From: an uncultured Paracoccaceae bacterium
Lineage (GTDB): Bacteria; Pseudomonadota; Alphaproteobacteria; Rhodobacterales; Rhodobacteraceae
DNA length: 64,000 bases
NCBI GenBank assembly: GCA_947502145.1
Contig: CANMYO010000003.1
Span: 248,001 to 312,000 of the forward strand
Direction: 5' to 3'
Numbering within the stretch: the stretch's first letter is position 1; the number at the start of each line of letters is the position of its first letter. The position numbers and the translations under genes were made by a program. Positions 7,303 to 63,982 of this stretch are shown piece by piece. The notes under the pieces were generated by a model that had not been told where the DNA came from, ran no database searches, and was given only the letters and a program-made list of their open reading frames with translations.

Positions 7303-8043
7303 CTAAGCCATTGGTTCCATTGCCGTTCCTGTTACACCCCAGGCACCTGTGTCATGTGTGGCGTCGCGATCGACAAGGGCGACGATACGTTTAGCCAGCA
7401 GATCAGGGGTCAGCTGTGCCTCCCATTGTGCCATGAATTGCGCCGAGGACACACCACGCGCATCCGCATAAGCCGCGCAGGCGGTCTCGGCGGTCCGGGT
7501 GCCGGCGATGAACTGCTTTGGATAAACGGTGTAACAGCGCAGGCCCAATCCGCGCCGCTCGGATTCCCAGGTTGCGTAGTTGGTCAGATAGTGCTGCATC
7601 CGCTTGGCCCCGGCATAGCCGCCCGACAGGGTCGAACCGCTGATTGCCGCACCGCTTGACAGGGTCACGATGGCGCTGCCCTTTGCCATCGGGGTGGTGA
7701 CCGCAGCCTTGAGAAAGTCAAACGTCGTCTTGGTGTCGGCGTTCCACGTGGCGCTGAAATCCTCCCAGCTTTGGTCGGTAAAGCTGCTCATCTTCGGGGT
7801 GATGCCACCGGCCAGGACCAGAAGATCAGGCTGCACCGCGGCGACCAGATCTGCGGCGATTCCGCTGGCACCGTCGCCCTGATGGGTTGCGATGTTCGGG
7901 TTTTCGGCGCGCAGGCTGTCCAGATCATCGCCGGTGCGGGCCACCGCCGTCACCGCGCTGCCGGCCTTGGCCAATTGTAGCGCAAGCGCGCGCCCGGTGC
8001 CGCGCCCGGCGCCAATGATCAACGTGTTATTGTACTGGGTCAT
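7303..8043 (-). CDS. SDR-family NAD(P)-dependent oxidoreductase
   Basis: Predicted 246 residues. The Rossmann cofactor loop GAGRGTGRALA follows the first strand (TLIIGAGRGTG, about 8-18), and an LVLAGG motif replaces the usual NNAG. The active-site serine region VTLSSGAAISGS and the YAGAKR Tyr-x-x-x-Lys are present. The chosen ATG (8041-8043) has GAAAGG about nine bases upstream; an ATG nine bases earlier sits directly on that motif and is less likely. The gene stops at 7303 and the sigma-factor ATG follows immediately, so the two form one transcript. The SDR is the probable effector partner of the sigma factor. The substrate is unknown. Confidence 0.85.
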   Translation of the reverse strand: MTQYNNTLIIGAGRGTGRALALQLAKAGSAVTAVARTGDDLDSLRAENPNIATHQGDGASGIAADLVAAVQPDLLVLAGGITPKMSSFTDQSWEDFSATWNADTKTTFDFLKAAVTTPMAKGSAIVTLSSGAAISGSTLSGGYAGAKRMQHYLTNYATWESERRGLGLRCYTVYPKQFIAGTRTAETACAAYADARGVSSAQFMAQWEAQLTPDLLAKRIVALVDRDATHDTGAWGVTGTAMEPMA

Positions 8044-61292: not shown

Positions 61293-61392
61293 CAGCGCTT
61301 AGATGCGGGTTTTCCAGACCTGCGGGACCGGCTCTGAACTGCTAACTTGAAGTCGCCATATTTCTGGCAATTTCAAAGAAGGAGTTTTTATC

Positions 61393-61710
61393 ATGCTTAA
61401 CGTTGAGAAATTATCTCGCGACCAAATGCTCGAAGTTGTCGCAGACCGATTGGCCCGCAAGCGGGTTGACGGTGACGCGGTCACAGCCATGTCCAAGGTC
61501 ATCTTTAATGACGAATTTCCCGTCATAGACTTTGATGTGTGCAAATACGGCACCTGCTGGGACTTCGAATTCAAGGGCCCGTTGGTCAAGTTTGAACTGC
61601 AGCGGCTGCTTGAAATGGTGCCGGGCCGGGTGCGCAACGTCGATATCATGATCGACGGGATCACGGATCCGGAACGCCTGCGCGTCCGCGTCGGGCAAGA
61701 GCTGGGCTGA
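61393..61710 (+). CDS. Small protein with CKYGTC motif, coupled to a radical SAM enzyme (105 aa)
   Basis: A 105-residue protein with a strong AAGGAG ribosome site eight bases before the ATG. An N-terminal helical half (NVEKLSRDQMLEVVADRLARKRV) precedes FPVIDFDVCKYGTCWDFEFKG, with only two cysteines, C50 and C55, then a helix and a strand-rich tail (RNVDIMIDGITDPERLRVRV). No domain is recognised. The stop overlaps the radical SAM start (TGATG), so the two are made together. It could be a substrate, a chaperone or an electron-transfer partner of that enzyme; there is no Gly-rich leader/core layout typical of classic RiPP precursors. Confidence 0.72.
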   Translation: MLNVEKLSRDQMLEVVADRLARKRVDGDAVTAMSKVIFNDEFPVIDFDVCKYGTCWDFEFKGPLVKFELQRLLEMVPGRVRNVDIMIDGITDPERLRVRVGQELG

Positions 61711-62669
61711 TGGCCCTTATGGCGCGTCGGGTGGTGCACATCCACCCGACACTTCTGTGCAACCTCACATGTGCCCATTGCTATTCTACCTCCAGCCCGC
61801 AGATGCCGCGCGGGCTGGATCCCGATGATATCCTCAAGGCGACTGCGCAACTGGCTGAACAAGGCTACGACAGCGCAAGCCTGTCAGGCGGCGAGCCGAC
61901 GATATATTTTGGTCTGGATCGGTTGTGCGATGGCTTGCGCGATCAGAACTTTTCGGTGTCTGTGATCACAAACGGGCTGCAGCCACGGCGCATTGTGTCC
62001 TTTGCCGAACGTCACCGCCCTGACCTGATTTCAGTCAGTTTTGATGGGCTGGCACCGCGTCACGACCTGATCCGCCGCAAACAGGGCAGTTTCGAGCGCG
62101 CGATGGAAAGCCTGATGCGCCTCACCGGGGCGGGGCATCGCTGTGGTGCCGTCGTGTCGCTTGGCGAAGACGGGATGGAGGACATCCCGGCGCTGGTGGC
62201 GCAGATTGCTGCCGCAGGGGCAAGCCATGTGCAGATTCACCCGGTATCAGAGCTCGGCCGCGGGCTGACATCGGCAATTGTCCGTGAGCCAAGCGACGAC
62301 ACCCTGCTGCGTGCAATGGTGTTGAGCCAGGTGTTGGACGTGATGTATCCGGAGTGCCGGATCATTTGTGACGCCCTGACCGGTGATCTGCTGCAGGCCA
62401 AGCCGCGCCCAAAAGTGGGTGAACTGGTGTCCCCGGTGGTGATCGGAGCGGACGGCCAGGTCTTTCCGGTGGCCTATGGGCTGGCCGGACAGTTCAGTTT
62501 TGGCAACCTCAGCGACGGGGTTTCCCCAACCGTTTACAGCGCCGCGTTGGTCGACCTGATTGATCGCTGCTGGAATGATGCCGCGTCGCGGGCTGCGACC
62601 GCATTTTATCCTGACCTGACGCGGCTCAGCCACGCGGAACGTAAAGCAGCGGTGGCCGGCCAAACGTGA
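61710..62669 (+). CDS. Radical SAM enzyme (MoaA/peptide-maturase-like, no SPASM cysteines)
   Basis: A 319-residue radical SAM protein. The cluster motif CNLTCAHC is at residues 17-24; SGGEP at 59-63; SVITNGL, ISVSFDGLAPRHD and HVQIHPVSELGRG follow the TIM-barrel order of MoaA/AlbA/PqqE relatives. The C-terminal block GADGQVFPVAYGLAGQFSFGNLSDG aligns in style with SPASM domains, but the cluster cysteines there are absent. It begins inside the stop of the small CKYGTC protein. Its substrate is unknown; the neighbour is the first candidate. Confidence 0.85.
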   Translation: MALMARRVVHIHPTLLCNLTCAHCYSTSSPQMPRGLDPDDILKATAQLAEQGYDSASLSGGEPTIYFGLDRLCDGLRDQNFSVSVITNGLQPRRIVSFAERHRPDLISVSFDGLAPRHDLIRRKQGSFERAMESLMRLTGAGHRCGAVVSLGEDGMEDIPALVAQIAAAGASHVQIHPVSELGRGLTSAIVREPSDDTLLRAMVLSQVLDVMYPECRIICDALTGDLLQAKPRPKVGELVSPVVIGADGQVFPVAYGLAGQFSFGNLSDGVSPTVYSAALVDLIDRCWNDAASRAATAFYPDLTRLSHAERKAAVAGQT

Positions 62670-62752
62670 ATGCGCCAGATGTGCATTTGCGACGGATAAA
62701 CTGTGCGATCAAACGGCTCGCGTACCGGTGGAAATGGGCGTAAGGCAGGCAC

Positions 62753-63982
62753 ATGAAAATCGTGCGCCTCGAAGATACGCATCAGTTGCCATTCTGGCGG
62801 CGACCCATTGGCATGCTGCTGATGATGGCGCTGGCGATGCCAATCGCATTTAACACGTGGATTGCCCTGCTTAATAACTTCGTCATTGAAGTGGCGCGCT
62901 TTGATGGGGCCGACATTGGTCTGCTTCATACGGTGCGCGAGATTCCGGGCTTTCTGGCGATCGGCGTAATTGCCATCATCATGTTCATGCGCGAGCAGGT
63001 GCTGGGATTGGTGTCACTTGTCATGCTTGGCATCGCCACCGCGCTGACAGCGCAATTTCCCAGCATGGGGGGGATTCTGACGATCACGATGCTGTCGTCG
63101 ATCGGGTTTCACTACTACGAGACCGTCAACCAGTCGTTGCAGCTCCAATGGCTGGACAAAGGCCGGGCCCCACAGGTCATTGGGTGGCTGATGGCGGCAG
63201 GGTCAGGCGCGACGTTGGTCGCCTATGTGATCATCGTAATGACGTGGGAAGCATTCGATCTTAGCTATAGTTTTGTCTATTGGATTGCAGGCGGGATCAC
63301 GACCGCGATTGCCATTTTCTGCCTTGCCTTCTATCCGCAATTCGAAGCGCCGCATCCGCAACGCAAGGAATTTGTGCTCCGCAAGCGGTATTGGCTCTAC
63401 TACGCGCTGCAATTCATGTCAGGCGCACGGCGGCAGATCTTTGTTGTCTTTGCCGGCTTCATGATGGTCGAGAAATTTGGTTTTGAGGTCCATGAGGTCA
63501 CGGCGCTGTTTCTGATCAATCTGGTCGCAAACGTGTTGTTCGCGCCTCTGATCGGGCGGGTGGTCACAGTATTCGGGGAGCAGCGGGCGCTGCTGTTTGA
63601 ATATGCCGGTCTTGTGGCGGTCTTTCTGGCCTATGGCGGTGTTTATTACCTTGGGTGGGGAGTTGTTGTTGCCGCGACGTTGTACGTCGTGGATCACATC
63701 TTCTTTGCGCTTGCGCTCGCGTTGAAGACATATTTCCAGAAAATTGCGGATCCTGGCGATATTGCCCCGACGGCAGCGGTCGCATTCACCATCAACCATA
63801 TTGCGGCAGTCTTTCTGCCTGTTCTTCTGGGGCTACTTTGGTTATTGTCGCCGGCGGCCGTGTTCTTTTTGGCGGCAGCCATGGCGAGCGTTTCGTTTGC
63901 TCTTGCTCTGTTGATCCCACGCCATCCGGTTCCGGGGTATGAAACACGCCTGACGCGACCCCTTTCTGCGCCGGCAGAGTAG
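62753..63982 (+). CDS. MFS transporter
   Basis: A 409-residue membrane protein with about twelve helices. A short cytosolic N-terminus (MKIVRLEDTHQLPFWRRP) leads into helix 1; REIPGFLAIGVIAIIMFMREQ is the loop 2-3 region; KEFVLRKRYWLYYALQFMSG marks the central loop before the second half; PRHPVPGYE ends it. AAGGCAGG precedes the ATG. It starts 83 bp after the radical SAM gene with no terminator between, so it may belong to the same transcript and move the product. The gene is complete and stops 18 bp before the right edge. Confidence 0.87.
   Translation: MKIVRLEDTHQLPFWRRPIGMLLMMALAMPIAFNTWIALLNNFVIEVARFDGADIGLLHTVREIPGFLAIGVIAIIMFMREQVLGLVSLVMLGIATALTAQFPSMGGILTITMLSSIGFHYYETVNQSLQLQWLDKGRAPQVIGWLMAAGSGATLVAYVIIVMTWEAFDLSYSFVYWIAGGITTAIAIFCLAFYPQFEAPHPQRKEFVLRKRYWLYYALQFMSGARRQIFVVFAGFMMVEKFGFEVHEVTALFLINLVANVLFAPLIGRVVTVFGEQRALLFEYAGLVAVFLAYGGVYYLGWGVVVAATLYVVDHIFFALALALKTYFQKIADPGDIAPTAAVAFTINHIAAVFLPVLLGLLWLLSPAAVFFLAAAMASVSFALALLIPRHPVPGYETRLTRPLSAPAE

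What the first reader, a model, noticed from the sequence alone, without database searches (positions are those of the whole stretch)
61393..63982. Small two-Cys protein, radical SAM enzyme and MFS transporter as a possible new modification/export set
A 105-aa protein with an isolated C-x4-C (CKYGTC) is coupled by TGATG to a radical SAM enzyme with CNLTCAHC but no SPASM cysteines, and an MFS transporter follows with no terminator. Small protein + radical SAM + transporter is the layout of peptide-maturation systems, but the small protein does not look like a standard precursor, so the function is open. Linking the three as one system is inference.
Basis: partly seen in the sequence, partly recalled or inferred. 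Interest (0 to 1): 0.7.

Follow-up and report, generated by a model that had tools for sequence, protein, structure and literature searches.

The report
Radical enzyme with dedicated small partner
A rare bacterial gene pair couples a small protein of unknown family to a stripped-down radical enzyme that probably works on it; the pair recurs in distant bacteria, while the neighbouring transporter gene is just a neighbour.

Summary
The anatomy is as described: a 105-aa protein with CKYGTC, TGATG overlap to a radical SAM gene (CNLTCAHC, no SPASM cysteines), then an MFS gene 83 nt on. Small protein and enzyme are a real, conserved pair: the small protein was found in 10 genomes (own genus, two other genera of the family, two Euzebyaceae MAGs, two genomes of a third class); the enzyme follows directly in 9, and in the tenth the contigs break there. 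The MFS gene is not part of it: it is in 6 of 6 genus genomes, the pair in 4 of 6, and in the 3 other pair-bearing species two genes lie between. The two cysteines are not universal: one lineage lacks both. What persists is a C-terminal motif, [MF][IP][DWY]GI, found also in the otherwise dissimilar partners (77 and 61 aa) of two further enzymes of the same SPASM-less clade. Beyond the radical SAM superfamily no model names either protein at its cutoff. Best reading: a single-cluster radical SAM enzyme acting on its dedicated partner protein, the motif being recognition or modification site. That the partner is substrate rather than obligate subunit is inference (about 0.45 v 0.35).

The parts
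61347..61376 (+). conserved hairpin in the 5' leader of the small gene, just before its Shine-Dalgarno
   Evidence: Aligned leaders of 4 species of the genus; folds -11.3, -9.6, -7.3, -9.6 kcal/mol, z -2.26, -1.79, -1.42, -1.79. Modest statistics; not seen by eye in front of the G101 pair.
61379..61384 (+). AAGGAG, likely ribosome binding site of the small gene
   Evidence: sequence; conserved
61393..61710 (+). 105-aa dedicated partner protein (probable substrate or obligate subunit of the radical SAM enzyme)
   Evidence: no hit in Pfam or PADLOC; NCBIfam best E 0.095, PHROGs best E 0.067
61540..61557 (+). CKYGTC: first motif, lineage-specific cysteine pair C50/C55
   Evidence: CKYGTC / CPYGIC / CVYGIC in three lineages; FPKGIP, no cysteine, in L011 and G913
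61648..61662 (+). MIDGI (residues 86-90): the motif [MF][IP][DWY]GI shared by partners of all subclades of the ten-row enzyme clade
   Evidence: 15 hits in 14,587 ORFs, 13 in partner genes
61710..62669 (+). radical SAM enzyme with a single cluster motif C17-x3-C21-x2-C24 and no auxiliary-cluster cysteines
   Evidence: C17, C21, C24 are the only invariant cysteines in 10 rows

Best explanation
A two-gene radical SAM unit. The 105-aa protein is the dedicated protein partner, most likely the substrate, of a small radical SAM enzyme that has only the SAM-binding cluster motif. Shown: operon order, tight translational coupling in most lineages, joint presence across distant bacteria, no third gene shared by all loci, a SPASM-less enzyme clade, and a short C-terminal motif ([MF][IP][DWY]GI) kept in the partners of all subclades although their length (61 to about 119 aa) and the rest of their sequence change. 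Inferred: the enzyme binds the partner through this motif and abstracts a hydrogen atom there or at the related upstream motif ([CF].[YK]G[IT]), leaving a modified residue in a small protein that stays in the cell, since no protease or exporter is shared by the loci. Which bond is changed is not known. Sactionine or ranthionine chemistry by way of an auxiliary cluster is unlikely, because the auxiliary-cluster cysteines are missing and the partner's cysteines are not universal; epimerisation of the EpeE/PoyD type with a fixed enzyme cysteine as hydrogen donor is also not supported.
For: Pairing: small protein found in 10 genomes (G000, G149, G150, G152, G118, G101, G536, G537, G538, G913); the enzyme follows directly in 9 of 10, and in G536 both contigs carrying the small gene end 49 nt after its stop while a third contig (L009) starts inside the small gene and runs into the enzyme. 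Coupling: a start codon overlaps the partner's stop in the own genus (TGATG), G101 (ATGA), G118 (GTGATG), G913, and probably a CTG start (CTGA) in Euzebyaceae; in L011 the nearest start is 3 nt after the stop. Surroundings: of 1298 ORFs around the pair in seven lineages, only partner and enzyme recur across lineages, apart from one FMO relative near G083 (29%). Enzyme clade: 10 rows, support 95/97; invariant cysteines only C17, C21, C24. Motif: in 1.88 million residues of 14,587 ORFs 15 hits, 13 in partner genes, including the partners of G083 and G146, which the profile of the 105-aa family does not find; the other two hits lie more than 5 kb from the enzyme. Low dN/dS on both genes within the genus.
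Against: No direct evidence of modification. Within the 105-aa family the protein is conserved over much of its length and its model has a helix-helix-strand-strand-helix-strand-strand order (pLDDT 52, unreliable), which does not look like leader plus core. One-base or four-base overlaps suggest equal amounts of partner and enzyme, which suits a subunit better than a precursor made in excess. No protease or exporter is shared. The motif was cut to five positions after G083 and G146 were seen; the further positions of the pattern do not match in them. The repeat of the motif within one protein is significant only in L011 and G913 (1 and 0 of 200 shuffles reach the score) and not in the window protein, G118, G101 or Euzebyaceae (200, 97, 33, 164 of 200). 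The sister pair (G004, Mycolicibacterium) lacks the motif.
Confidence: 0.45

Rival explanations
1. The small protein is an obligate accessory subunit (recognition, docking or electron-transfer partner, as PqqD is for PqqE, recalled) of a radical SAM enzyme whose real substrate is another protein or a small molecule encoded or made elsewhere.
For: Stop-start overlaps in most lineages; conservation over much of the length within the 105-aa family; the enzyme begins about 10 to 40 residues before its cluster motif, so it has no N-terminal recognition domain of its own; BlsE, which acts on a small molecule and has a single cluster (the latter recalled), is among the closest solved structures.
Against: Partners of G083 and G146 share only the short motif with the others, unusual for a subunit that must fit a conserved enzyme; no further gene shared by the loci; the low-confidence model does not show the order of a winged-helix recognition element.
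Confidence: 0.35
2. One reading: peptide precursor, maturase and MFS exporter as one three-gene unit.
For: Order and spacing in the window. In all 4 genus genomes that have it, the pair lies just upstream of the run that holds MFS.
Against: MFS in 6 of 6 genus genomes, pair in 4 of 6; a USP gene on the other strand and the FMO gene between pair and MFS in 3 of the 4; FMO-MFS-msrA in 5 of the 5 other genus genomes, with or without the pair; no MFS relative near the pair outside the genus at E 1e-4, though unrelated transporters lie nearby in places (MFS-like gene about 5.8 kb from the G118 pair on the other strand; a membrane protein that looks like TauE upstream of the G537 pair).
Confidence: 0.03
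3. A variant of viperin-like (nucleotide-modifying) or heme d1/siroheme-type (NirJ/AhbC) radical SAM enzyme acting on a small molecule, with the small protein as regulator.
For: Partial matches over the N-terminal half to pVip models (best E 7e-13 to 6e-24 over six enzymes) and to NirJ/AhbC models. Genes that look like cobalamin biosynthesis lie a few kb from the G118 pair.
Against: Matches far below curated cutoffs (47.9 v 180 bits for NF038283, 77.5 v 515 for NirJ) and confined mainly to the core barrel; the cobalamin-like genes are not shared by the other lineages.
Confidence: 0.12

Closest known systems
GDL-motif peptide system (TIGR03913 radical SAM/SPASM maturase with DUF1843 small proteins, e.g. 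Azospirillum sp. B510 plasmid)
   Same: small protein gene(s) upstream of a radical SAM gene; best NCBIfam match of the window enzyme (82 bits); layout seen
   Different: score far below its cutoff of 591.75; that enzyme is a 516-aa protein annotated SPASM; the window partner has no Pfam hit, so not DUF1843
SkfB / SuiB (solved structures of RiPP maturases)
   Same: core radical SAM barrel; best sequence match SkfB 1.3e-14, best folds SkfB and SuiB (on a model of mean pLDDT 61)
   Different: no N-terminal recognition domain, no auxiliary-cluster cysteines; partner is a 105-aa protein rather than a short leader-core peptide
BlsE (cytosylglucuronate decarboxylase)
   Same: third-ranked fold and second-ranked sequence relative in the PDB; a radical SAM decarboxylase (title and start of the abstract of PMC3715490 in the listing)
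   Different: acts on a small molecule in blasticidin S biosynthesis; no such cluster seen here
Mycolicibacterium pCBMA213_1 radical SAM pair (WP_155921908/WP_155921909) and its relative in G004
   Same: sister branch of the enzyme tree (85/81); small partner directly upstream
   Different: partner of another family (FEGGDFGTV and a GPRP stretch; 54% identical between the two; no match to the 105-aa family); both enzymes keep CAAYVCNG.GCH, further cysteines absent from the window's clade
QhpD with the quinohemoprotein amine dehydrogenase gamma subunit (recalled; papers seen only as a listing)
   Same: a radical SAM enzyme modifying a small cysteine-bearing protein that stays folded (recalled)
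   Different: QhpD is a SPASM enzyme (recalled); the window partner has no Pfam match; cysteines here are dispensable in one lineage

Membership tests
Radical SAM superfamily (PF04055) | CxxxCxxC cluster motif in a radical SAM barrel domain | tested here: met
   PF04055 6.9e-20, 72.3 bits v 29.5 cutoff; C17, C21, C24 invariant in 10 rows
SPASM/twitch radical SAM RiPP maturases | C-terminal auxiliary-cluster cysteines | tested here: not met
   no invariant cysteine besides C17/C21/C24 in 10 rows
SPASM/twitch radical SAM RiPP maturases | N-terminal or separate RRE/PqqD-like recognition domain | tested here: inconclusive
   no room for one in the enzyme; none in the partner by Pfam/NCBIfam, structure model too poor
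RiPP system in general | small precursor-like gene beside the modifying enzyme | tested here: met
RiPP system in general | protease and/or exporter linked to the pair | tested here: not met
   no such gene shared between lineages in the stretches held (some contigs are only 7-9 kb); MFS excluded
RiPP system in general | post-translational modification of the small protein | not testable with these tools
   needs mass spectrometry
GDL-motif system TIGR03913 | equivalog cutoff 591.75 bits and DUF1843 partner | tested here: not met
   82.4 bits; no Pfam hit of the partner
pVip / prokaryotic viperin | NF038283 cutoff 180 bits over the whole protein | tested here: not met
   47.9 bits over residues 8-117; PADLOC 46.5 bits over the same stretch
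NirJ / AhbC / AhbD tetrapyrrole enzymes | curated cutoffs 500-650 bits | tested here: not met
   77.5 (NirJ), 49.1 (AhbC) and 36.4 (AhbD) bits
EpeE/PoyD-type epimerases | conserved enzyme cysteine as hydrogen donor | tested here: not met
   no further invariant cysteine; requirement as given in PMC8326336 section 11

The most novel reading that the evidence does not exclude
A new class of protein modification: a one-cluster radical SAM enzyme without SPASM cysteines or recognition domain modifies a small folded partner protein at a repeated aromatic-Gly-Ile motif ([CF].[YK]G[IT] and [MF][IP][DWY]GI), the motif being conserved while the rest of the partner turns over between subclades, and cysteines being present at one motif in only some lineages.
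Probability: 0.35. Interest if true: 0.7.

Novelty: new variant of a known kind. Interest (0 to 1): 0.5.

Why it matters
Radical SAM genes with small partner genes have been a source of new chemistry, and a large share of the enzymes known from peptide maturation carry a recognition domain and a SPASM or twitch domain (passage of PMC8326336). Here is a clade with neither, a dedicated partner in every member found, and a short motif that says where to look. Whether the enzyme changes its partner, and where, can be settled with two genes in one expression strain and a mass spectrometer. It also corrects a tempting three-gene reading: the transporter is an old neighbour.

Tried and rejected
MFS as third member: rejected. 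Cysteine pair as universal reaction site: rejected. Known families for the small protein: Pfam, NCBIfam, PHROGs, PADLOC and a PDB profile search gave no credible hit. Homology of the 105-aa family to the G004/Mycolicibacterium partner (probability 0.2%) and to the G083/G146 partners by profile: not shown; only the short motif links the latter. Internal repeat: significant in two of six proteins only. Structure of the small protein: mean pLDDT 52, pTM 0.32, not used for a fold search. The enzyme model has mean pLDDT 61 and its last 97 residues are below 50, so the state of the SPASM-like C-terminus was not settled. Viral contigs: 51 radical SAM relatives, only scanned for the motif; no relative of the small protein. 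Plasmids: no match for the window's small protein. Alignment A4 misaligned L011 in my judgement and was dropped for A7. In some searches I gave the G083 and G146 partners one residue short at the end (the latter also one residue early). Papers: searches (15 of 41, 15 of 172, 0, 1 of 1, 9 of 9, 6 of 15 and 5 of 41 papers listed); no title or abstract start listed named this pair. Read beyond listings: passages of PMC9062424 and PMC8326336, and section 11 of PMC8326336. Subscription papers are mostly not in the library.

Full report
What is in the window. The three ORFs are present at the stated coordinates and are protein-coding: 105 aa at 61393-61710, radical SAM at 61710-62669, MFS at 62753-63982, with dN/dS between 0.04 and 0.15 in comparisons with and between two sister species. 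The window is G000:C3:248001-312000 of a 4.03-Mb genome. The named sister contigs are uncultured Rhodobacteraceae. Gene order: tal (minus), priA, small gene, radical SAM, MFS, msrA, prmA (names of flanking genes by sequence look, not by family scans).

The MFS gene is a neighbour. In the genus the small gene was found in 4 of 6 genomes and the MFS gene in 6 of 6. In all 5 other genus genomes (G149-G153) an FAD-dependent monooxygenase gene (FMO, named by look) lies directly before MFS and msrA after it. In the 3 of them that have the pair (G149, G150, G152) a universal-stress-protein gene (USP, by look; other strand) and FMO lie between the radical SAM gene and MFS. G151, which lacks the pair, has tal-priA-USP-FMO-MFS-msrA in one stretch, with about 320 bp between priA and USP. 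Most simply, MFS came to lie beside the pair in the window species because USP and FMO are missing there. For the other side: in all 4 genus genomes with the pair it lies just upstream of this run.

The pair is real. With the small protein or its profile, matches were found in 2 of 149 and 4 of 394 family genomes (overlapping samples), 4 of 6 genus genomes, 1 of 385 class genomes (the own one), 2 of 66, 2 of 148 and 1 of 396; these counts include genomes that gave the query, and the first look scores only a limited number of candidates per genome, so weak members may be missed. Together 10 genomes hold it: G000, G149, G150, G152, G118, G101, G536, G537, G538, G913. G536 and G537 are Euzebyaceae MAGs; G538 and G913 belong to an unnamed class that must differ from the other two by its size (148 genomes held, against more than 385 and 66). 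The radical SAM gene follows directly in 9 of 10; in G536 the two contigs with the small gene end 49 nt beyond its stop, and a third contig (L009) begins inside the last 22 codons of the small gene and continues into the enzyme. In an all-against-all comparison of 1298 ORFs of at least 60 codons around the pair in seven lineages (including G083 and G146 below), the partner and the enzyme, with their overlapping shadow frames, are the only ones that recur across lineages at E 1e-4, apart from one FMO near G083 that is 29% identical to the FMO of L008. Some stretches are short (7-9 kb). In most lineages a start codon of the enzyme overlaps the partner's stop; in Euzebyaceae no ATG, GTG or TTG is available before the cluster motif and a CTG overlapping the stop (CTGA) is the likely start, an inference.

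The enzyme. It has the CNLTCAHC motif and no other invariant cysteine across ten relatives. It reaches no specific NCBIfam cutoff (best TIGR03913, 82 bits v 592). A tree of 31 rows, 18 of them outgroups that I picked from the 80 loci, puts ten SPASM-less enzymes in one clade (95/97), with a Mycolicibacterium plasmid enzyme and G004 as sister (85/81); the program flags two of the ten rows (G913, one Euzebyaceae) for unusual composition. Of the 80 loci, L007-L011 have the small partner (L009 cut). L017 also matches most of the query (residues 1-286) but is a 786-aa protein with many late cysteines and no such partner; most of the rest carry late cysteines and match mainly up to about residue 255, some being cut by contig ends. 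A search of 228 family genomes with the enzyme profile gave, beside G000, G118 and G101, two more full-length members, G083 and G146, and the sister-type G004; among 207 class genomes none beyond the own one matched at full length at E 1e-38.

The motif. G083 and G146 have small ORFs of 77 and 61 aa upstream of their enzymes (74 and 81 nt before the likely start). The profile of the 105-aa family does not find them, but both contain MIDGI, as the window protein does (residues 86-90). Scanning every stop-to-stop ORF of at least 50 aa in all loci then held and the window (14,587 different ORFs, 1.88 million residues) for [MF][IP][DWY]GI gives 15 hits, 13 of them in partner genes (12 genomes) and 2 elsewhere (L074, L033), both more than 5 kb from the radical SAM match. 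Eleven of the 13 belong to the 105-aa family, whose members were found with sequences or profiles that contain the motif, so the test is the two hits in G083 and G146, which are relatives of each other and count as one event. The first five positions were in a pattern printed before they were seen, but I cut the pattern to five after seeing them; its next positions do not match. The background of 2 hits in 1.88 million residues still makes a chance match in two short partner ORFs unlikely. The partner of the sister pair (G004, Mycolicibacterium) lacks the motif.

The cysteines. C50-x4-C55 is kept in the own genus, in G118 and G101 (CPYGIC) and in Euzebyaceae (CVYGIC), but is FPKGIP in L011 and G913, and the partners of G083 and G146 have no cysteine. 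The first motif looks like a second copy of the later one (CPYGIC/FPKGIP v FPYGI); by shuffling this is significant in L011 and G913 only, of six tested.

How it may work. Thioether formation in sacti- and ranthipeptides has been proposed to involve an auxiliary cluster of the SPASM or twitch domain, whose role is called controversial, and epimerases of the EpeE and PoyD type a fixed enzyme cysteine (passages and section 11 of PMC8326336). Neither feature is met here. I therefore commit to a single-cluster hydrogen abstraction on the partner, with the motif as binding or reaction site, at 0.45; a stoichiometric accessory subunit is the main rival at 0.35. The overlap of the genes and the conservation within the 105-aa family speak for the rival; the turnover of the partner around a fixed motif, and the lack of another shared gene, speak for the substrate.

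Novelty. Radical SAM plus small partner gene is a known kind of cassette (work of Haft and Basu as described in passages of PMC9062424). This clade, its partner families and the shared motif match no specific model at its cutoff in the libraries searched here, and no title or abstract start listed by seven paper searches named it (lists capped). Hence a new variant of a known kind, of moderate interest until a modification is shown.

Noticed in passing
window 61347-61376: A hairpin of 9-11 pairs in the leader of the small gene, ending just before the Shine-Dalgarno, is conserved in four species of the genus; possibly an operator or a translation control element.
   Followed up: partly
L007 and L008, about 7584-8000: Between these two sister species the small gene is 94.9% identical (dS 0.22), its leader 85-97% per 60 bases, while the adjacent radical SAM gene is 82% (dS 0.84); suggests recombination or extra constraint on the small gene.
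   Followed up: partly
L154 2966-2990 (Euzebyaceae MAG): The radical SAM frame has no ATG, GTG or TTG before its cluster motif; a CTG overlapping the partner's stop (CTGA) is the likely start.
   Followed up: partly
L093 7536-9062 and L191 4508-5931: A second kind of pair: 113-118-aa partner with FEGGDFGTV and a GPRP stretch, 54% identical between a Mycolicibacterium plasmid and a genome of the window's family, upstream of a related radical SAM gene with further cysteines.
   Followed up: partly
L189 6160-6390 and L190 2730-2912 (minus strand): Short partners (77 and 61 aa) that end in Phe (LMGF, MMQF) and share MIDGI; more like peptide precursors than the 105-aa type.
   Followed up: partly
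L192 4805-6780 (minus strand, G126): By look a separate peptide-maturation cassette: 59-aa precursor-like ORF, 106-aa PqqD-like ORF and a radical SAM gene with late cysteines.
   Followed up: no
L189 7819-9807 (minus strand, G083) and L008 9422-10588: A flavin monooxygenase-like gene lies near the pair both in G083 and in the sister species of the window (29% identical); probably a common family met twice, not tested.
   Followed up: no
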